From NCBI RefSeq assembly GCF_006517175.1, contig NZ_CP041186.1, positions 1,453,001-1,517,000 on the forward strand: 64,000 bases of DNA, written 5' to 3'. Positions 34,443 through 46,014 of the stretch are shown in pieces; position 1 is the stretch's first letter; each line of letters opens with the position of its first letter. The notes beneath the pieces were generated by a model. The model did no database searches and was not told the DNA's origin. It saw nothing but the letters and a program-made list of their open reading frames with translations. Origin of the DNA: Persicimonas caeni (lineage in GTDB: Bacteria; Myxococcota_A; Bradymonadia; Bradymonadales; Bradymonadaceae). The translations under genes and the position numbers were made by a program.

Positions 34443-34811
34443 TCAGTCGTCGAAGACGAACTTGACCTTGCCCTCGTCGCCAAGCGTCAGCCTGGTGGAG
34501 AAGGACTTTCCGGCCTTGGACTTAAAGCCTTTGAGTTTGCGGGTGGTTTTCCCCTCGAGGAGCTGAGTGGCGACCGACGTCGTGATGCGCTTTCCGGCAA
34601 TCTTCTTGAAGATGACGAAAGCGCAGTCGCGCCCCGTTCTGCAGTAGTACGCCTTCTTACCCTCGAGGACGTCGGCACCACACAGCGGGCAGGTGCCCAG
34701 GGTCTCAGGCCCAGCGGACGGCAAGTCGACCGAGCGAGTGATGATGTTTCCAACGACCTCGCGGGTGAGCTTGCGCACCTGCCCCATGAAGGCGCCGCGC
34801 TCAAGCTTCAC
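34443..34811 (-). pseudogene. topB: topB 3' fragment (type IA topoisomerase III C-terminus)
   Basis: About 120 residues corresponding to the C-terminus of plasmid-type TopB: FMGQVRKLTREVV, a zinc-finger-like CPLCGADVLEGKKAYYC, then FVIFKKIAGKRITTS, LLEGKTTRKLKGFKSKAGK and the last strand GKVKFVF. All catalytic domains are missing because the reading frame runs into DUF3644 sequence at about 34806, the right end of the inserted segment. The first residues (VKLERG) may come from the junction. It shows the donor was broken inside topB. Confidence 0.82.
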
Positions 34812-34812
34812 C

Positions 34813-35703
34813 GTGGCAATTGAGTCCTACAACCGGCCCTCACTCCATAACCGCGTCGAAGTTTTCACGATCCTCATCACGAACGCTTGGGAGTTACTGC
34901 TAAAGGCGGAAATCATCAAAGCGTCCGACAACATAGACGCCATTTTTTACAAGGACTCAGACCGGTCGCTTGCAATTCGAGATGCGCTGAAGCAACGAAT
35001 TCCCAAGGAAAATGATCCGGTGCGGAAAAACCTCGAAAAGGTGTGTGACCTGCGCGATAATGCAGTGCATCTGCTGATTCCAGAGCTTCAGGCGCATTGG
35101 TCACGTCTGTTTCAGGCCAATGTTCTCAACTTCATTACACGCTACGAAGATGCCACCGGAGAGAATCTCTTCAACAGCGGTCGTGGCATGCTCAGCCTCA
35201 TCGTGGACCGAGAAGCAGCCGAGCTAGCCACGATCAAGCTGAAGTTTGGAGAAGCATCTGCCGAAACAGTTGAATTATTCTTGCAGCGGTTTCTCGCAGA
35301 CGAGGAAGAACTTGATACGCCGAACTTTGCGATTCCGGTCGACTATCGGCTGGTGCTCACGAAGGCCAATCAGCAGGGAGATATAGTGCTGTCGCACGGT
35401 GAGGGTGGCCGACGTGCGATAAAGGTTGTCCAATCGAGAAACATCGATAAGACGCACCCGCATCTGATGATGGAAGCAGTCGAATTGATCGGTGAGCGTC
35501 TGCCCGAGCACCACGTTACCAGACCTCGTGTGACGGCAATTTGCGAGAAGCATCACATCTATAACTCACCGGGTTCGAAATACTACGACGAGATTCAAAA
35601 GCCGTTCACAAGACGCTTCTCTGACACATTTGTTGATTGGGTTGTGGAGAAGGCGAGTGAGGATACTGAGTGGATTGAGCGTGCGTGGGACTGGTACTCG
35701 TGA
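34813..35703 (+). pseudogene. 3' part of the DUF3644/HEPN-like gene, severed from its 5' end
   Basis: 296 residues starting VAIESYNRPSLHNRVEVF and ITNAWELLLKAEII, the hallmark of DUF3644. An R-x4-H motif, RDNAVH (residues 81-86 of this part), matches the HEPN RNase active site pattern. GTG 34813 or ATG 34786 (inside topB antisense sequence) could start translation, so a truncated protein without the N-terminal helix-turn-helix may still be made. Its 5' part is at 25398-25715. The reverse transcriptase gene follows after 172 bases on the same strand, so the two were probably one operon. Confidence 0.82.
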
Positions 35704-35875
35704 AATCGGACGTCTTTTGGCTGAACGACAATGCGATACCGCGGGAACAGTGAGGCCTTCTCGGACGAAAATAGCGTCTGTCAGGTCGCCAACGGCTACC
35801 AAAAGCCGCATATGGCTGGCTACGAGCGAGAGTTTCTATCATCAAATCATGCTCTTTCGAGCAAGGGAGTCTTGA
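35704..35875 (+). other. Gap between DUF3644 and reverse transcriptase genes, possible ncRNA
   Basis: 172 bases with no open frame of note on the plus strand. A small hairpin, CGGCTACCAAAAGCCG (about 35799-35814), and several short self-complementary stretches are visible. Several defence RTs (for example DRT2 and DRT9) use a structured RNA encoded beside the RT as template, so this is the first place to look; nothing in the sequence proves it. A ribosome binding site (AAGGGA) lies at its end. Confidence 0.35.
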
Positions 35876-37525
35876 GTGTCGAGACGCGCTCCAACATTAG
35901 ATTCATTGCTTCGTTCGGGGTACTTTCCAAAAGAACTTCCTCCTGCGTTTACGACCGCCCCCTTCGCGAATGCTTTTGCTGAGAAAGACATCGACGAAGA
36001 GTTCTTTGGCATTACGAACGCCAGTGACCCAAATGCGGTCGCCAATCGTTTCAAAGGAGCTTCTGCGACCCGTCCCGCACAGCACTTTTTGGCGCTGCGG
36101 AACGGTGGCCGACGACGACTTGAAGTTCCGAACCCCGCAAGCTTCTATTGGCTTGCGAAAGAAATAAGTGCAGGATGGCACGAGCTATGGGCGAAGATCG
36201 GTCGATCTCAACTGTCGATTTCTGCGCCGCAAGTAAACGATGATTCTAGCCGTGCGGTTACCCCACAGTCTCCTGGTAATAAGCGTCCAGAAATTCGCGC
36301 GCAGCGTTTTTGCTACGGGACAATACTGTTTGAGTGCGACATAGCGTCCTACTACCCGTCGATCTATACCCATTCCATTCCTTGGGTTCTACATGGGAAA
36401 GAAAAGGCGAAGTCCAACAAGAATGGGCTGAAACTGTTGGGTAATCGGCTGGACAAGTTGTGCCAGAACTGTCAGCGCCGGCAAACTCGGGGGATTCCAG
36501 TCGGGCCAGACACCTCACTAATTATCAGCGAGTTGCTTCTTTCAGAAGTGGACGTGCGACTGTCTGAATTAGACGAATTACGGGGAGGAATGCGCTTTTA
36601 TGATGACTTCGAGTTGGTGTGCGAGACTGACGATGATGCTAACTTACTTAGGAGTTCGATTGAAGATGCACTGGAGTGGCTAGAGCTTGAGGTGAACAAT
36701 CGGAAGTGCCGGATTGAACGTCTTCCTGTTGAGTTGGATCCTCCCTGGCGGCGAGAGCTACGACGGTGGGAAGCAAAAAAACGTTCTGGACCCTCGATTC
36801 GAGGAGTAAACAAGCTGAACCCGCAAGAGTTACTAGATTTTTGGGATACCACAACAGCTCTTCAGGGCGACGCCCCGCATGATCCAGTGATTAAAGAAGC
36901 GATCGTAAGGCTCAGTCTGCGCGACGGATTGGCAGTACGACCGAGCCGAAGATATCAAAAGTTTTTGGCGTCGGCGCTCCGGCTTCAACCGGCCTTGGCT
37001 AGACCTGCGTTCACGGAATTGCTGCGGATCAAGAAACATGGGTGCCTCGACGCCGATCTCCTCAACGACGTGCTCTCACATCGAGTAAAGCGATTCGCAC
37101 AAACGCGGGCAACGAATGAGGTGGCTTGGAGTGTATGGGGCGCACTCGCGTTGGATGTCTCACTTGGAGAAGAATGTGGCCAGATTCTTGCGGATGTAGA
37201 TGATGCTTTTGTTGCTCTCTTGTCGTTGATAGCTCGGGAAAAAGGGCTGATTACGGGGCTTGGACGCATCGAGCGATGGAAGTCGTGGTGCACGGCGGAA
37301 TCGCTCAAGGATGAAAATTGGCTTGGATGCTATCAAATTGCTAAGAGTGGCCTTATTGATGGGGTCGACAACAGTATTCTTGAATCTCAACACTATTCGT
37401 CTCAGCTGAGAGCCGCCGATGTGGATTTTGTTGATATTGACGACTTCGACGACATAGATGCGCTGATTGCGAAACTGAATTTGAAAAGATTGGCTCGAGA
37501 GCTCGATGGCGGAGGGCAGTCCTGA
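35876..37525 (+). CDS. Reverse transcriptase of the UG/Abi/DRT defence type
   Basis: 549 residues. N-terminal LLRSGYFPKELPPAF phrase, then RT fingers and palm: motif A FECDIASYYPSIYTHSI (catalytic D155), motif B RQTRGIPVGPDTSLIISE (203-219), motif C RFYDDF (D243, D244) and a motif D-like LELEVNNRKCRIERLP. The YYPSIYTHS and GIPVGPDTS forms are typical of Abi-like and UG reverse transcriptases, not of group II introns. Residues about 290-549 form a helical C-terminal domain, as in that clade. The start is GTG 35876 with AAGGGA before it. Codons are AT-rich. The exact class cannot be assigned by eye. Confidence 0.9.
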   Translation: MSRRAPTLDSLLRSGYFPKELPPAFTTAPFANAFAEKDIDEEFFGITNASDPNAVANRFKGASATRPAQHFLALRNGGRRRLEVPNPASFYWLAKEISAGWHELWAKIGRSQLSISAPQVNDDSSRAVTPQSPGNKRPEIRAQRFCYGTILFECDIASYYPSIYTHSIPWVLHGKEKAKSNKNGLKLLGNRLDKLCQNCQRRQTRGIPVGPDTSLIISELLLSEVDVRLSELDELRGGMRFYDDFELVCETDDDANLLRSSIEDALEWLELEVNNRKCRIERLPVELDPPWRRELRRWEAKKRSGPSIRGVNKLNPQELLDFWDTTTALQGDAPHDPVIKEAIVRLSLRDGLAVRPSRRYQKFLASALRLQPALARPAFTELLRIKKHGCLDADLLNDVLSHRVKRFAQTRATNEVAWSVWGALALDVSLGEECGQILADVDDAFVALLSLIAREKGLITGLGRIERWKSWCTAESLKDENWLGCYQIAKSGLIDGVDNSILESQHYSSQLRAADVDFVDIDDFDDIDALIAKLNLKRLARELDGGGQS

Positions 37526-39472: not shown

Positions 39473-41365
39473 ATGACCGCTTTCGACCCCACACCCTACC
39501 TGACCCAAGACGAGGGGCAGCATTACGAGCGCAAACCGCTCTTCGAGGGGCGTCCCGGGGCGAAGAAGGCGCGTGACCGCCGGGAGGTGCGCGACCAGGT
39601 CGCGGAGTACGTCGCGGCGTTTGCCAACGCGGAGGGCGGCATCTTGCTGCTCGGAGTCGAGGACGACTGTGTGGTCACGGGCCACGACTACAGCGAGCGT
39701 CCGCTCGAGCATGTGCTCAACGTGCCGCAGGCGCGGTTGGAGCCGCCGCAGGCGCCGGGGTTTGTGGTGGAGCACGATGGCCATGAAGTGATCGTCTTCG
39801 ACGTGCAGGCGTCGGACGTGCCGGTGCAGGTGACCGGTGATGGGTTTCCGCTGCGCATGGGCGATCGGACGGTGCAGGCGAGCGAGTCGCAGATTCGCAG
39901 CCTCAAGTTTCATGGCATGGCGGAGAGCTGGGAGAGCAGGCCCTCCCCGTTGACCTTGGATGACCTGGACGGGGAGTTGCTCGCGCGAGCGAAGGCCGGG
40001 TCGGGGCTGCAGTCGGCGTCGGACGTCGACTATCTGTTGCGGCGCAAGTTGGCCGATCGGCGCGGGGCTGGGATTCAGTTGCGGCGGGCGGCGGAGCTCG
40101 TCTTCGCTCAATACGGACCGGACCATCCGAATGCGGGCGTTCGCTTGTTTCGGGTCATCGGCACCGAGCGGCGCCTGGGGCCCGAACATAACGTCGAAGA
40201 ACGGCCGCGCATCGAGGGCAATCTGCCCGCGGTGTTGGACGAGGCGATGACGCTTATAAATGGGCTGTTGCGGCGTCCATCGCGGCTGGTCGGCTCCAAG
40301 TTCAAGGCCATGCCGGAGTACCCCGACTTTGCGTGGAAGGAAGCGTTGCTCAACGCGGTCGCTCACCGCGACTACGCGGCGCAGGGCCGCTGTACGGAAG
40401 TGTGGCTGTATGATGACCGCATGGAGGTGCGCAATCCGGGTGCGCTGATGGAGACCGTGTCGCTCGAAGGCCTGCGACGCCAGGAGCGGTTTCACGCCAG
40501 CCGAAATCCTCGCTTGGTTCGGGTGCTCGTCGACCTCGGGTATATGCGCGACCACGGGGAGGGCATCCCGCGGATGTTCTACGAGATGGAAGGGAGCTTT
40601 TTGCCCGAGCCGGAGCTCGACGAGACGACCCACTCCTTTGCAGTCACGCTGCGCAACACGCCGGAGTTGAGCGAGGCTGACCGCCGTTTTATCGCGCGAG
40701 TCGATAGCGACGAATTGTCGAAGGAGGAGTTTCGCGCTCTGTTGGAGGCACACCGGCATGGGCGGGTTGATAACGCGCGGATGCGACGCCTTGTCGGCTT
40801 AGATACGCTGAAGGCGAGCCAGCTGTTGAGGCGGCTTCGCGATCAGGGATTGCTCGAGCTTCATGCAGCCGGATCTGCAAGTTATTACACGCTCGGTGAG
40901 TCTCTTTCGGTCGAACGAGAGACTTCGGAGGCCGAACAGAAGACTTCGGAGGTCGAACGAGAGACTTCGGAGGTCGAACGAGAGACTTCGGAGGCTGAAC
41001 AGAAGACTTCGGAGGCCGAACAGAAGACTTCGGAGGCCGAACAGAAGACTTCGGAGGCCGAACAGAAGACTTTGCTCCGCGAGCAACTCTTGCGCATGCT
41101 TCCAGAAGAGTTACGAGTTCAGGTCGAGTCTGTGCGGTCACGCGCCCCGGTTGAGCAGATGCAATCGCTGGTCAGAGATCTGTGTGAGTTGCGGGCGCTG
41201 CGTCCGTTGGAGCTCGCGGCCCTCCTAGATCGCGGCACGAGTCGGGTAACCTCCGCATATTTGAGGCCTCTCGTTGACGCCGGCAAACTCGAACGCACGC
41301 ATCCGGAAACACCGCACCACCCTGATCAAGCTTATGTCGCTGTAAATGAGAACTCTGGGGGATAG
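39473..41365 (+). CDS. AlbA_2 (Schlafen-like) ATP-binding protein with heptad repeat tract
   Basis: 630 residues. The N-terminal AlbA_2 / AAA_4 domain reads YVAAFANAEGGILLLGVEDD (residues about 42-61). A C-terminal ATP-binding module has FAWKEALLNAVAHRDYAAQG and DHGEGIPRMFYEME. Winged-helix-like segments follow, one interrupted by seven tandem copies of a seven-residue unit (ERETSEA / EQKTSEA; DNA 40913-41059). Such proteins are common between hsdS and hsdR and are thought to act with the restriction system, though their function is not settled. The hsdR start lies two bases after its stop. Confidence 0.88.
   Translation: MTAFDPTPYLTQDEGQHYERKPLFEGRPGAKKARDRREVRDQVAEYVAAFANAEGGILLLGVEDDCVVTGHDYSERPLEHVLNVPQARLEPPQAPGFVVEHDGHEVIVFDVQASDVPVQVTGDGFPLRMGDRTVQASESQIRSLKFHGMAESWESRPSPLTLDDLDGELLARAKAGSGLQSASDVDYLLRRKLADRRGAGIQLRRAAELVFAQYGPDHPNAGVRLFRVIGTERRLGPEHNVEERPRIEGNLPAVLDEAMTLINGLLRRPSRLVGSKFKAMPEYPDFAWKEALLNAVAHRDYAAQGRCTEVWLYDDRMEVRNPGALMETVSLEGLRRQERFHASRNPRLVRVLVDLGYMRDHGEGIPRMFYEMEGSFLPEPELDETTHSFAVTLRNTPELSEADRRFIARVDSDELSKEEFRALLEAHRHGRVDNARMRRLVGLDTLKASQLLRRLRDQGLLELHAAGSASYYTLGESLSVERETSEAEQKTSEVERETSEVERETSEAEQKTSEAEQKTSEAEQKTSEAEQKTLLREQLLRMLPEELRVQVESVRSRAPVEQMQSLVRDLCELRALRPLELAALLDRGTSRVTSAYLRPLVDAGKLERTHPETPHHPDQAYVAVNENSGG
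40913..41071 (+). repeat. 21-bp in-frame tandem repeat, seven units plus a partial
   Basis: Units begin GAACGAGAGACTTCGGAGG or GAACAGAAGACTTCGGAGG and run at exact 21-bp spacing from 40913 to 41059, then a partial unit. They encode ERETSEA/V and EQKTSEA/V. Near-identity of the last four units suggests recent expansion; copy number changes would leave the frame open and alter a linker length. Confidence 0.95.
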
Positions 41366-41367
41366 AA

Positions 41368-44334
41368 GTGAGTAAGGCCCACCTCGAAAAGAACTTCGAA
41401 GACGAAATCGAAGCGCATCTGCTCGCCCACGGCTATCGGTCGGGCAGCGCGACCGACTACGACCGCGAGCGGGCATTGATGCCCGATGAGGTCATCGCGT
41501 TCGTCGAGGCGACGCAACCCAAGCGGTGGGCGAAGCTCGGCCGGATGCTCGGCGAGGGCAAGCGGCGGAAGGTCTTCCTCGATGGATTGACGCGGGCGAT
41601 GTCGAAGAAGGGGAGCCTCGAGGTGTTGCGGCATGGTTGTCGGGTGCGGGGCGTGCCGTTCAAGCTCGCCTACTTTCGGCCGGCGCACGGGCTCAATCCG
41701 GAGGTGCTCGAGCTGTACGAGAAGAACCGGCTGACGGTGGTGCGCCAGCTCTACTACGACCCGAAGAACAAGAATAGCATCGACCTGGTGCTCTTCTTGA
41801 ACGGCGTGCCGGTGGTGACGGCCGAGCTCAAGATGGAGACGGCCGGGCAGAACTACAAGAACGCGATTGGGCAGTACAAGCACGACCGTGACGCGAAGGC
41901 GCCCATCTTCCGGTTCAAGGAGCGCGCGCTGGTGCACTTCGCCATCGACTCCGACGAAGCCCACATGACCACCCGGCTCGCCGGGCAGAGCACCTACTTC
42001 CTTCCGTTCAACAAGGGGTTTCGCAAGGGCGCGGGCAATCCGCCCGTGGATGGCAAGCACCGTACGCATTACGTGTGGGAGGAGGTCTGGCAGCGAGACA
42101 GCCTGCTGCAGATCATCGGCCGGTTCATGAACCTGCAGGTCGACCCGGAGAGCGGCAAAGAGACGATGATTTTCCCGCGCTACCACCAGCTCGATTGTGT
42201 GCGGAAGCTCGTCGCGGCGACGAAAGGCAATGGGCCTGGCAAGAACTACCTGGTGCAGCACTCGACCGGGTCGGGCAAGTCGATGTCCATCGCCTGGCTC
42301 ACCCACCAGTTGCAGTCGCTGCACGACGACGCCGATAACAAGGTATTCGACTCGGTGGTGGTCGTGACCGACCGGCTGGTCTTGGACAAGCAGCTCCAGG
42401 AGACGATCTACCAGCTCGAGCACAAGTCGGGCGTGGTCGAGCAAATAGACCAAGACTCTACGCAGCTCGCGGAGGCGCTGGAAGCCGGCGCGCCAATCAT
42501 TATTACGACGCTGCACAAGTTTCCCTACGTGACCGAGAAGATCGGCGAACTCCCCGGCAATAACTACGCGGTCGTGGTCGACGAGGCGCACAGCTCTCAG
42601 TCAGGCGAGATGGCCGCGGAGATGAAGAAAATCCTGTCGGGGAAGATCGACGACGACGTGCTCCGGGAGTTCGAAGATATTGAAGGAGATGCGAGCAACG
42701 CCGATGTCTACGCGGCCGCCTTCAAGGCCGCGCTGTACCGCGGGCCGCGGCCGAACCTGAGCTTCTATGCGTTCACGGCTACGCCCAAGTACAAGACTCT
42801 CAAGATGTTCGACCACAAACGTGAAGGGGCGCCGGAGCCGTTTCACCTGTACTCGATGAAGCAGGCCATCGAGGAGGGCTTCATCCTCGACACGCTGGAG
42901 AAGTACGTCACATACAAGACCTACTTCGGGCTGGTGAAGAAGATCGAGGACGACAAGCGCCTCGACAAACGGAAGGGCTCGAAGGCGTTGGCGCGCTTCT
43001 TGAGCCTGCACCCGCACAACGTCTCGCAGAAGACCGAGATCATCGTCGAGCACTTCCAGCGAAACACGCGCAAGAAGATCGACGGCCGCGCCAAGGCGAT
43101 GGTCGTCTGCGGCTCGCGTCTGCACGCCGTACGCTACAAGCTCGCCTTCGACGCCTACATCAAAGAGCACGGCTACAAGGACCTGGGCGTGCTCGTCGCC
43201 TTCTCCGGCACCGTCGAAGACCCCGACACGGGTCAAAGCTACACCGAAGAGGGGATGAACGGCGGTATCAAAGAGGGCGAGCTCCCGCGCAAGTTCGACA
43301 CCGACCGCTACCGCTTCCTCATCGTCGCCAACAAGTACCAGACCGGCTTCGACCAGCCGAAGCTGCACACGATGTACGTCGACAAGCGGCTCGCCCACAT
43401 CCAGGCCGTCCAGACGCTGTCGCGCCTCAACCGCACCACGAGCGGCAAGGACGACACCTTCGTGCTCGACTTCGTCAACAAGCGCGAGGAGATCCTCGAG
43501 GCGTTCAAGCCGTTTTACGAGCGCACCACCATCGACGAGGACATCGACCCGCAGAAGCTCTACGACCTGCAACACGACCTGCAGGAGTTTCGCATCTTCG
43601 AGCAACAGGAGGTCGAGGCGTTCGCCAAGATCTTCTTCAAGGAGAAGGTCTCGAAGGCCGACAACGGCCGTCTCAACTCGAAGCTCGACCCGGCGGTCAC
43701 GCGCTTCAAAAACCGCGAGGAAGAAGAGCAAGACGACTTCCGCGCCATGCTCAACAACTATCTGCGCCTCTACTCGTTCATGGCCCAGGTCGAAGAGTGG
43801 TCAGACGCCCAGCTCGAGATGCTGTACGTGTACGGGCGGTTGCTCGCGCGGAAGCTGCCCAGGCGCAACGAGCAGACCGAGGACGTCGATATCTCGGACG
43901 ATGTGGCGCTCAAGTACTACCGGATTCAGCAGACCGGGGAGGGCGCTATCGCTTTGGAAGGCGGTGGGACGGTGTCAGGGCCGCTCGAGGTTGGGACCGG
44001 GGCGAAGACCGAAGAGGATGAGATCGAGCTGAGTCGGTTGATTGATGTGCTGAACGAGCGGTTCGGCACTGACTTCAGTGATTCCGACGAAGTTATCGGT
44101 GAACAATGGGCAGCTGCTCTTGCGAACCGCGAAAACGTACGTCGAGCGGCTCAGGCCAATACCAAAGAGAACTTCAAGTACCCCGCGTCTAAGGAACTCG
44201 ACGATGTAGCGCTCGAGAGCCACGGCAACTACACCGAATTCGTCGACAAGTTCTTTTCGGAAGATGAGTTTCGTAAGGTGGTCCAAGAGTGGGTGTTGGA
44301 CCGAGCGTTTGATATTGCTCGTGAGTCGGCGTGA
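41368..44334 (+). CDS. hsdR: hsdR, type I restriction endonuclease subunit
   Basis: 988 residues; translocates and cuts DNA. The N-terminal nuclease has the PD-(D/E)XK pattern SIDLVLFLNGVPVVTAELK (Asp and Glu-x-Lys, about 137-155). The superfamily 2 motor has Walker A HSTGSGKSMSIAW, motif II VVDEAHSSQSGEM, motif III YAFTATPKYKTL and motif VI QTLSRLNRT. Start is GTG 41368, two bases after the AlbA_2 gene. It looks intact. It is separated from hsdM and hsdS by 16 kb, only part of which (about 9.1 kb) is the recent insertion. Confidence 0.95.
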   Translation: MSKAHLEKNFEDEIEAHLLAHGYRSGSATDYDRERALMPDEVIAFVEATQPKRWAKLGRMLGEGKRRKVFLDGLTRAMSKKGSLEVLRHGCRVRGVPFKLAYFRPAHGLNPEVLELYEKNRLTVVRQLYYDPKNKNSIDLVLFLNGVPVVTAELKMETAGQNYKNAIGQYKHDRDAKAPIFRFKERALVHFAIDSDEAHMTTRLAGQSTYFLPFNKGFRKGAGNPPVDGKHRTHYVWEEVWQRDSLLQIIGRFMNLQVDPESGKETMIFPRYHQLDCVRKLVAATKGNGPGKNYLVQHSTGSGKSMSIAWLTHQLQSLHDDADNKVFDSVVVVTDRLVLDKQLQETIYQLEHKSGVVEQIDQDSTQLAEALEAGAPIIITTLHKFPYVTEKIGELPGNNYAVVVDEAHSSQSGEMAAEMKKILSGKIDDDVLREFEDIEGDASNADVYAAAFKAALYRGPRPNLSFYAFTATPKYKTLKMFDHKREGAPEPFHLYSMKQAIEEGFILDTLEKYVTYKTYFGLVKKIEDDKRLDKRKGSKALARFLSLHPHNVSQKTEIIVEHFQRNTRKKIDGRAKAMVVCGSRLHAVRYKLAFDAYIKEHGYKDLGVLVAFSGTVEDPDTGQSYTEEGMNGGIKEGELPRKFDTDRYRFLIVANKYQTGFDQPKLHTMYVDKRLAHIQAVQTLSRLNRTTSGKDDTFVLDFVNKREEILEAFKPFYERTTIDEDIDPQKLYDLQHDLQEFRIFEQQEVEAFAKIFFKEKVSKADNGRLNSKLDPAVTRFKNREEEEQDDFRAMLNNYLRLYSFMAQVEEWSDAQLEMLYVYGRLLARKLPRRNEQTEDVDISDDVALKYYRIQQTGEGAIALEGGGTVSGPLEVGTGAKTEEDEIELSRLIDVLNERFGTDFSDSDEVIGEQWAAALANRENVRRAAQANTKENFKYPASKELDDVALESHGNYTEFVDKFFSEDEFRKVVQEWVLDRAFDIARESA

Positions 44335-44368: not shown

Positions 44369-45520
44369 CTACTCTTCGGGACTCAACTCGAAGTGCCGTG
44401 GACTGTTGAGCTGAAATCCTCTTCCGCTTCGGTCGAGTTCTCCCAGTACTCGGACTGGCGTGCGATGTTCAAATGCGCGAATCGCGGCTGCAAAGTCGTC
44501 TTCGGAGAGGGCTACTGCAACCTTACGTGACTTACCTTCGACAGCGCCCATGACGGTAACTGTACCCGGTCCAGAGCTTTGCTCGCGGTGAAGACGAATA
44601 ACAACTCCTTCCAGTTCGAACTCTTCGCGTGGGCTTTTCTCTTTGAAGACCCGTGACACTTCCTCGAAGACGGGCAAGACATCGGGCGACATCGATACAG
44701 TCGTCGGGACACCCTGCGGGGCCTTGCGATTCGATGCCCAGGTTAGACGAACTTCAAATGGAGCGTCTGCGTCCGTGCCTGCGAGTCCTAGAAGCGCATC
44801 ACATAAGTTTGCGCTTACTCCTGACGATACAGCACGATTGAAGGGGTCGATATCGCCTGTGGCCATGGCACGTTGAGCTGCAGAACGTGCTGACTGGAGT
44901 CCTGACATCAGCGTGCGAGTAACCTGTCGCTCGAAAGGCTCTTCGGTGGTGGCACCGTCTTCGAACAAGGCTGGCTGAGTGCGCAGGACCGGAGGAACTC
45001 GTGAGAGTACAGTGAGAATAAAACTGCCGGGCTCGGTCTGCCCCATCTTCAGACGGCGCACATACTCGATGGACTGATCGAATTTTCGTGCGTGATAGTA
45101 CTCGCGAGGCTCGACCGCCGAGCAAGCTGCCGCCAGCATCATGGCTCGTGTGTTTGCGACGGCCGCGACGGCATCGTCGAAGCGAATCGAATCAGTTGAC
45201 CCATTGTCGGTAAACAGACGGACGCGCACGGTATCGACGGCCGACGATTGCACATCTCGTAGCAGAGCTAGTTGGGAGCGCCCTTCGGCTCGAGCAAGGC
45301 TTTGAAAGAGATCAGCAGTCCGCAAGGCATAGTCACGAAGATTGCGATCAAGCGGAACAAGCAGCTCGACCTCTTGCCCGGAGTCGAGAGCGCTCGTCCA
45401 GATTGCGGCTTGTTCTCCTATTGTTTCCACTTGAGTCCAACCGCTGGCACGCAGATAGGACACTACTTCCAGCGGAGTGAGGGACTGAAATGTCTCTTTA
45501 TCTCGGATGTCGACTTTCAT
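44369..45520 (-). CDS. Conserved protein of unknown function, partner of DUF4365 protein
   Basis: 383 residues, no signal or membrane helix. The N-terminus (LTPLEVVSYLRASGWTQVE) and a central RTADLFQSLARAEGRSQLAL plus AAACSAVEPREYYHARK form blocks that I recall from other bacterial hypothetical proteins, without known function. The C-terminal third is beta-rich and contains GVVIRLHREQSSGPGTVTV. Its start overlaps the stop of the DUF4365 gene by four bases, so both are co-translated. The pair is convergent with hsdR at the edge of the defence island; a sensor or regulator role for the nuclease is a guess. Confidence 0.8.
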   Translation of the reverse strand: MKVDIRDKETFQSLTPLEVVSYLRASGWTQVETIGEQAAIWTSALDSGQEVELLVPLDRNLRDYALRTADLFQSLARAEGRSQLALLRDVQSSAVDTVRVRLFTDNGSTDSIRFDDAVAAVANTRAMMLAAACSAVEPREYYHARKFDQSIEYVRRLKMGQTEPGSFILTVLSRVPPVLRTQPALFEDGATTEEPFERQVTRTLMSGLQSARSAAQRAMATGDIDPFNRAVSSGVSANLCDALLGLAGTDADAPFEVRLTWASNRKAPQGVPTTVSMSPDVLPVFEEVSRVFKEKSPREEFELEGVVIRLHREQSSGPGTVTVMGAVEGKSRKVAVALSEDDFAAAIRAFEHRTPVRVLGELDRSGRGFQLNSPRHFELSPEE

Positions 45521-46014
45521 GGGCGCTCTCCTTTGGAAATCAACTCCATTATAGTCGACAAGCTTTGGGTATCGAATTTTTGCTCGATCGGGACGTGCAC
45601 CGTAACGCGTGATTCGTTTTCAACTTCCTCCATACCGCACAGCGACATCCAATAGGCGCAGTGTCGCATCACCAATTGCTCATCAGAAAGGTCGAGCCAG
45701 TCATTCACTTCTTCGGGAAGCAGCACGACGACAAGAATTCTGGGCACAAGGCAATTAGTGGCCCGCAAATCCTCGTAGTTCTTGAGCTTCAGCGGGAACG
45801 GGATGACCTCGTCCCGAATTTGGACACTCGAGCTGCTCTTCAACTGCAGGTCTAGGCGCGGAGATCGCACCGTTCCACCTCCCCCAGCTTGCGCGATAGT
45901 CCAGTCGACGCTGTCATCGTCCACCCACGGCTTGGCTAGCCCAAAGCCAGATGTAGCTGCAACGGCTTGTACGAATGCGTTGCTGAATTCCTCTTTTCGA
46001 CGGTTAAGGTCCAT
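45517..46014 (-). CDS. DUF4365 protein, candidate D-QxK nuclease
   Basis: 165 residues matching DUF4365: RRKEEFSNAFVQAVAATSGF start, then SVDWTIAQ (D37), RLDLQLKSS (QLK, 57-59), KLKNYEDLR and ILVVVLLPEEVNDWLDL. The spaced Asp and Gln-x-Lys match the Mrr-like branch of the PD-(D/E)XK nuclease fold, so DNA cleavage is possible; family membership is from memory and the nuclease idea is inference. It is the first gene of a two-gene operon with the 383-residue partner. Confidence 0.78.
   Translation of the reverse strand: MDLNRRKEEFSNAFVQAVAATSGFGLAKPWVDDDSVDWTIAQAGGGGTVRSPRLDLQLKSSSSVQIRDEVIPFPLKLKNYEDLRATNCLVPRILVVVLLPEEVNDWLDLSDEQLVMRHCAYWMSLCGMEEVENESRVTVHVPIEQKFDTQSLSTIMELISKGERP

What the first reader, a model, noticed from the sequence alone, without database searches (positions are those of the whole stretch)
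44369..46014. Two-gene module: DUF4365 D-QxK nuclease candidate with a widespread unknown partner
The genes overlap by four bases and sit at the edge of the island next to hsdR and an Mrr remnant. The DUF4365 protein keeps D37 and QLK 57-59, a pattern of Mrr-like nucleases. The 383-residue partner has conserved blocks (EGRSQLALLRD; AAACSAVEPREYYHA) but no known function. A nuclease with a dedicated sensor is a reasonable reading.
Basis: partly seen in the sequence, partly recalled or inferred. Interest (0 to 1): 0.7.

Follow-up and report, generated by a model that had tools for sequence, protein, structure and literature searches.

The report
Nuclease-plus-OB-fold candidate phage-defence gene pair
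Two overlapping bacterial genes encode a DNA-cutting enzyme, with the same active site as a proven anti-phage nuclease, and a partner ending in a single-strand-DNA-binding-type domain; the pair is already listed as an untested phage-defence candidate, and its parts now suggest how it could work.

Summary
In detail: B (45520-44369, 383 aa) and A (46014-45517, 165 aa) lie on the minus strand and overlap by 4 bp (ATGA). The pair is not new. It matches PADLOC-DB's 'PDC-M02' candidate over full length (A = M02A, B = M02B); no paper in the library mentions PDC-M02.

A is a DUF4365 PD-(D/E)XK nuclease. Its model's best PDB matches are the DREN nuclease of SPARDA, a short-Argonaute defence system. D37, Q57 and K59 line up in motif and spacing with DREN's catalytic D41, Q60 and K62 and are invariant in about 97 homologues. 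B has three parts: a constant N-domain, a middle domain of unassigned fold, and an SSB/PriB-like OB-fold. Shorter partners (N+OB, about 180 aa) follow A in cyanobacteria, so N looks like the fixed adaptor and OB the common sensor.

In 80 of 81 sampled loci the partner is directly encoded with A. Eight of these pairs sit inside type I R-M operons, between hsdS/hsdM and hsdR.

Best reading: B senses ssDNA or replicating foreign DNA through its OB-fold and assembles or activates A for DNA degradation. The identity is secure. The sensing step, A-B contact and defence itself are inferred.

The parts
45517..46014 (-). Gene A: DUF4365 / PADLOC PDC-M02A, 165-aa PD-(D/E)XK (DREN-type) nuclease
   Evidence: AF2 pLDDT 90; SPARDA DREN Z 12.3
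45904..45906 (-). Codon of catalytic-type Asp37 (equivalent of DREN D41)
   Evidence: sequence; invariant; DREN D41A abolishes activity (PMC12205087)
45838..45846 (-). Codons of Gln57-Leu58-Lys59, the QxK half of the site (equivalent of DREN Q60/K62)
   Evidence: sequence; invariant; paper
44369..45520 (-). Gene B: PADLOC PDC-M02B, 383 aa, dedicated partner
   Evidence: E 1.2e-137, residues 1-382 on profile 1-376 of 380
45245..45520 (-). B N-domain, residues about 1-92; the constant module found in every partner of A
   Evidence: HMM searches; alignment A6
44636..45244 (-). B middle domain, residues about 93-295; present in long partners, absent from N+OB partners; fold unassigned
44381..44635 (-). 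B C-terminal OB-fold, residues about 296-380 (SSB/PriB/DnaE-OB-like)
45517..45520 (-). ATGA overlap of A stop and B start

Best explanation
The pair is a two-component nuclease defence module of the catalogued PDC-M02 kind. A is a small, non-specific DNA nuclease of the DREN/DUF4365 type, expected to be idle alone. B is its dedicated partner. Its N-domain is the constant adaptor that holds A. Its C-terminal OB-fold binds nucleic acid, most likely single-stranded DNA exposed by replicating phage or plasmid DNA. The middle domain adds a further input or an oligomerisation surface. On binding, B brings several A subunits together, as the Argonaute filament does to DREN in SPARDA, so that A cuts DNA and stops the invader or the infected cell. 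SHOWN here: genes, families, predicted fold, conserved site, near-obligatory adjacency, modular architecture, and embedding in R-M operons. INFERRED: A-B contact, ssDNA as the trigger, activation by assembly, DNA degradation, and anti-phage effect.
For: Family: PDC-M02A/B full-length matches. Fold of A: the only PDB Foldseek hits with E below 1e-3 are SPARDA DREN chains; VIA Z 12.3 over 138 residues for 9qbq, 9.6 for archaeal Hjc. Active site: D37/Q57/K59 invariant = DREN D41/Q60/K62, where D41A abolishes activity and isolated DREN is monomeric and inactive until tetramerised (PMC12205087); Q62A/K64A was the inactive mutant in TmuRE (PMC10810196). OB-fold of B: top Foldseek hits are OB-folds incl. 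SSB and PriB; VIA Z 10.5 (SilF), 9.8-8 for SSB and PriB; M02B profiles also hit the OB region of a DnaE-like polymerase. Modular partner: N+OB about 180 aa in about 55 loci, N+M+OB about 380 aa in about 25; Azospirillum N without M or OB. Adjacency: 80/81 loci, mostly the same 4-bp overlap. Defence context: type I R-M embedding in 8 of 81 named loci; 298 vs 57 PADLOC families in neighbours vs control regions of the same genomes. Carriers include phage LE1, M. abscessus prophages and plasmids.
Against: No A-B complex could be modelled. OB-folds also bind proteins, and the top VIA hit, SilF, is not a DNA-binding protein, so ssDNA binding is not shown. The middle domain's fold is unassigned. Many copies lie on plasmids or next to ordinary genes (e.g. 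L032, L034, L038), so not every locus is a defence island. No published activity test of PDC-M02 was found.
Confidence: 0.5

Rival explanations
1. Toxin-antitoxin / plasmid-addiction module: A is a self-toxic DNase held inactive by B, stabilising the mobile element that carries it; any phage effect is secondary.
For: Tight two-gene unit with overlap, carried on plasmids beside ParA and integrase genes and in phage/prophage genomes. In 4 of 22 phylum copies A carries an in-frame TAG while no B place in the phylum search does, as if A were costly.
Against: Recurrent embedding inside chromosomal type I R-M operons between hsdS/hsdM and hsdR. The nearest characterised nuclease (DREN) is inactive alone rather than toxic. 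B carries an OB-fold that an antitoxin would not need.
Confidence: 0.17
2. DNA recombination/replication accessory of mobile elements: a Hjc-like junction nuclease with its SSB/PriB-like partner.
For: The second-best fold family for A is archaeal Hjc (Z 9.6). B's C-terminus resembles SSB and PriB. Frequent on plasmids and present in phages.
Against: A's D-QxK site and best fold match are those of the collateral nuclease DREN. Patchy distribution (22 of 377 phylum genomes), and placement inside R-M operons is not typical of recombination genes.
Confidence: 0.12
3. Restriction-type system in which B is the specificity part: B recognises a modified or unmodified sequence in dsDNA and A cuts there.
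For: Association with R-M and Mrr genes; the middle domain is of unknown role.
Against: The N+OB partners lack the middle domain altogether yet keep A. No methylase or known reader domain is present in B.
Confidence: 0.12

Closest known systems
PADLOC-DB PDC-M02 (phage defence candidate, multi-gene 02)
   Same: Both proteins match the M02A and M02B models over their whole length, in the same order and adjacency; embedding in R-M operons is the kind of evidence by which PDCs were proposed (guilt by embedding, PMC12988326).
   Different: Nothing in the window pair falls outside it. What is added here is the fold, active site and domain reading, and the short N+OB and N-only partners (two-stretch or N-only matches to M02B models).
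SPARDA (short Argonaute with DREN/DUF4365-APAZ)
   Same: Nuclease domain: same fold, same D-QxK active site, similar spacing (41/60/62 vs 37/57/59).
   Different: A has no APAZ domain and B is not an Argonaute; no guide-based recognition part is present.
SSB / PriB / DnaE OB-fold proteins
   Same: B's last 85 residues adopt the OB-fold with those as main structural neighbours.
   Different: B adds an N-domain and a middle domain; nucleic-acid binding is not shown.
Mrr-type type IV restriction nucleases
   Same: D-QxK variant of the PD-(D/E)XK site; one lies next to the second copy in this genome.
   Different: A matches DUF4365, not Mrr_cat, in Pfam.

Membership tests
PDC-M02 | A matches M02A model full length | tested here: met
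   PDLC04278 E 5.1e-64, residues 2-164 on 4-166 of 167
PDC-M02 | B matches M02B model full length | tested here: met
   PDLC04298 E 1.2e-137, 1-382 on 1-376 of 380
PDC-M02 | The two genes adjacent and co-directional | tested here: met
   4-bp overlap; same in 80 of 81 loci
PDC-M02 | Protects against phage | not testable with these tools
   PDC-M02 in 0 papers of the library; most PDCs unvalidated (PMC12988326)
DUF4365 / DREN nuclease | Pfam DUF4365 match | tested here: met
   E 5.1e-25, 88.6 bits vs cutoff 24.3
DUF4365 / DREN nuclease | PD-(D/E)XK fold like SPARDA DREN | tested here: met
   Model pLDDT 90; VIA Z 12.3, 138 residues, rmsd 3.6
DUF4365 / DREN nuclease | Catalytic D...QxK | tested here: met
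   D37/Q57/K59 invariant; DREN D41/Q60/K62
DUF4365 / DREN nuclease | Degrades DNA | not testable with these tools
   needs purified protein
SPARDA | DUF4365 fused to APAZ | tested here: not met
   A is 165 aa, DUF4365 fills 8-158
SPARDA | Short Argonaute (MID-PIWI) partner | tested here: not met
   B has no PIWI match at E<=1 in Pfam; of its PADLOC matches the 25 shown are all M02B
OB-fold ssDNA-binding proteins | OB-fold present | tested here: met
   Residues 296-383: VIA Z 9.8 with 4dam SSB over 86 residues, 8-9 with many SSB and PriB; Foldseek
OB-fold ssDNA-binding proteins | Binds single-stranded nucleic acid | not testable with these tools
   needs binding assay
Mrr (PF04471) nucleases | Mrr_cat sequence match of A | tested here: inconclusive
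   Not listed for A at E<=1, but HMMER filters drop weak matches
Toxin-antitoxin modules | A toxic alone, B neutralises it | not testable with these tools
   needs expression test

The most novel reading that the evidence does not exclude
DUF4365/DREN nucleases act as a general effector outside Argonaute systems. In PDC-M02 they are controlled by an SSB-mimicking partner that detects exposed single-stranded DNA of replicating invaders and assembles the nuclease. The partner is modular: a constant adaptor (N) with exchangeable sensors, OB alone in cyanobacteria, middle domain plus OB elsewhere, and a helical tail in Azospirillum.
Probability: 0.3. Interest if true: 0.65.

Novelty: new member of a known kind. 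Interest (0 to 1): 0.43.

Why it matters
PDC-M02 is a database entry without a published mechanism in the library searched. The nuclease is now tied to a structurally understood effector (DREN), with named residues to mutate. The partner is split into an adaptor and an OB-fold sensor, with natural 180-aa minimal partners that make a reduced system easy to build and test. If the ssDNA-sensing reading holds, it would show how bacteria detect replicating foreign DNA without a guide or sequence code.

Tried and rejected
Direct search of genome contigs with B alone found nothing, and the divergent alignment A2 had no scannable stretch; a closer A-set alignment worked. PDB sequence search with either alignment gave no relative of A or B. 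Pfam for B: only noise (Trypco1 E 0.32; scattered E about 0.02-0.1 hits). The 'class I adenylate cyclase' NCBIfam hit (E 0.0085, far below its cut-off) was rejected as noise. Large ORFs L023/L024 that matched B's C-terminal part proved by their sequence to be DnaE-like polymerases whose OB domain is matched. TAG as a recoded sense codon, to explain stops inside A, was rejected: rpoB of the three genomes has no in-frame stop. Literature searches for an OB-fold sensor plus nuclease defence system gave nothing relevant. The fold library list for B was filled by the OB domain, so no known fold was assigned to the middle domain; that is not evidence of a new fold. The control set for the neighbourhood comparison is small (20 regions), and the local hsd/Mrr scan of the phylum loci (second block) used queries drawn from those loci, so it was not counted as independent.

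Full report
WHAT IS THERE. On the minus strand, gene A (46014-45517, 165 aa) is followed by gene B (45520-44369, 383 aa); A's stop and B's start share ATGA. G+C is 53-56 % against 65 % in the flanking core parts of the window, so the pair lies in the low-G+C island. The window is part of an 8.05-Mb single contig. The genome is probably myxococcotal: a 'same family' genome's contig (G062:C350, 15971 bp) has the same length as a matching record titled Myxococcales bacterium.

FAMILY. A is DUF4365. PADLOC-DB names A PDC-M02A (E 5e-64) and B PDC-M02B (E 1e-137) over full length. PDCs are candidates found by 'guilt by embedding' (Payne et al., doi 10.1101/2024.01.29.577857, cited in PMC12255303 and PMC12988326), most of them not tested. 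No paper in the library names PDC-M02.

THE NUCLEASE. With 18 sequences, AlphaFold2 gives A a pLDDT of 90. Foldseek finds only SPARDA DREN-APAZ chains below E 1e-3; VIA-align gives Z 12.3 for SPARDA 9qbq and 9.6 for archaeal Hjc. In NbaSPARDA, DREN's catalytic residues are D41, Q60 and K62, D41A abolishes activity, and isolated DREN is an inactive monomer that is switched on by tetramerisation on the Argonaute filament (PMC12205087). A's D37, Q57 and K59 have the same motif and nearly the same spacing, and are invariant in every aligned row with a letter there (98 rows). This equivalence rests on motif, spacing and overall superposition; a residue-level structural alignment was not produced. 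That A is a competent nuclease is therefore a strong inference, not a measurement.

THE PARTNER. B's model (pLDDT 89) ends in a five-stranded OB-fold (296-380) with SSB, PriB and RPA-type domains as neighbours; M02B profiles also touch the OB region of DnaE-like polymerases. I cut the family alignment into N (1-93), M (93-295) and OB (296-383) and searched each separately. Plasmid partners of A in Nostoc and Calothrix have N (E 1e-16 to 1e-20) and OB (E 1e-10 to 1e-12) but no M, in about 180 aa; Azospirillum lipoferum has N (E 4e-16) with neither M nor OB. In 81 further loci fetched through A (80 named genome records plus one viral contig), about 55 partners are N+OB (cyanobacteria) and about 25 are N+M+OB (cyanobacteria, Myxococcota, Magnetococcales, Planctomycetota, Chloroflexota and others); only one locus, with a broken A, shows no partner. 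On a tree of A the short/long label needs about three changes. So N is what always goes with the nuclease, and the rest varies. A Scytonema MAG has A and N+OB in one 343-aa frame, weak support for contact since it comes from one MAG.

CONTEXT. In the own phylum, M02B occurs in 22 of 377 genomes, a count that includes two DnaE cross-hits, and DUF4365 lies directly before it wherever the gene is complete, with the single exception of a hybrid N-domain protein at a contig end (L022). About 20 of 34 DUF4365 matches in the same sample have M02B beside them (comparing). Neighbours within 4.5 kb match 298 PADLOC families at E<=1e-10, against 57, led by Ser/Thr kinases, for random regions of the same genomes. 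Individual neighbours include type I HsdR/HsdM/HsdS, type III Res, a Mrr-type type IV enzyme, SNF2 helicases like DrmD/DruE, and HEC-06/Orf5-like proteins. In eight of 81 loci (L168, L169, L173, L193, L194, L206, L216, L220), and also in L052, the pair sits inside a type I R-M operon, all genes on one strand, between hsdS/hsdM and hsdR; this is the site used by DarTG2 in EPEC (PMC12255303). Carriers also include Leptospira phage LE1, M. abscessus prophages, and plasmids of several phyla. Many of these have ordinary neighbours, so the association is enrichment, not a rule.

HOW IT MAY WORK. The most economical model is that N binds A, OB binds single-stranded or otherwise exposed DNA of a replicating invader, and clustering of B assembles A into an active form, as Argonaute filaments do for DREN. 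M would add a second input in long partners. Shown: everything up to architecture and context. Inferred: each binding and activation step. Toxin-antitoxin, recombination and restriction readings are kept as rivals.

VERDICT. A correct observation of a real, recurrent and already catalogued candidate. The value added is a testable anatomy.

Noticed in passing
own genome C1:447182-448901 (L041 9682-11401): A second, diverged copy of the same two-gene pair in this genome, beside an intact 523-aa Mrr/PDC-S02 type IV-like enzyme (L041 11775-13343 +); the window copy has only an Mrr remnant beside it.
   Followed up: partly
L064, L069, L078, L028 (G062, G168 twice, G372): Four of 22 M02A nuclease genes in the phylum sample carry one in-frame TAG at different positions, while no M02B place there has a stop; rpoB of these genomes has none. 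Nuclease inactivation or assembly error.
   Followed up: partly
window 34693-37525: DUF3644 protein (PDC-S19) followed by a DRT4/DRT6-like reverse transcriptase (E 1e-129): further defence genes of the island.
   Followed up: no
window 39473-44334: AlbA_2/HATPase_c_4 protein with short TSEVERE-type repeats, three bases before an HsdR-like gene; no hsdM or hsdS was found among the scanned neighbours.
   Followed up: no
L116 6478-7032: Azospirillum lipoferum plasmid: DUF4365 followed by a partner with only the N-domain and a helical-looking tail, no OB-fold.
   Followed up: partly
L022 679-1797 (G061:C555): N-domain joined to a different C-terminal part, next to the start of an hsdR-like gene; the contig ends just upstream, so its partner is unknown.
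   Followed up: partly
L193 8001-9032: Scytonema hyalinum MAG with nuclease and N+OB partner in one 343-aa reading frame inside a type I R-M operon; a natural fusion or a one-base assembly error.
   Followed up: partly
L035 398-2160; L109 4432-6107: The pair is carried at one end of M. abscessus prophage genomes and in Leptospira phage LE1, as if it were prophage-borne defence.
   Followed up: no
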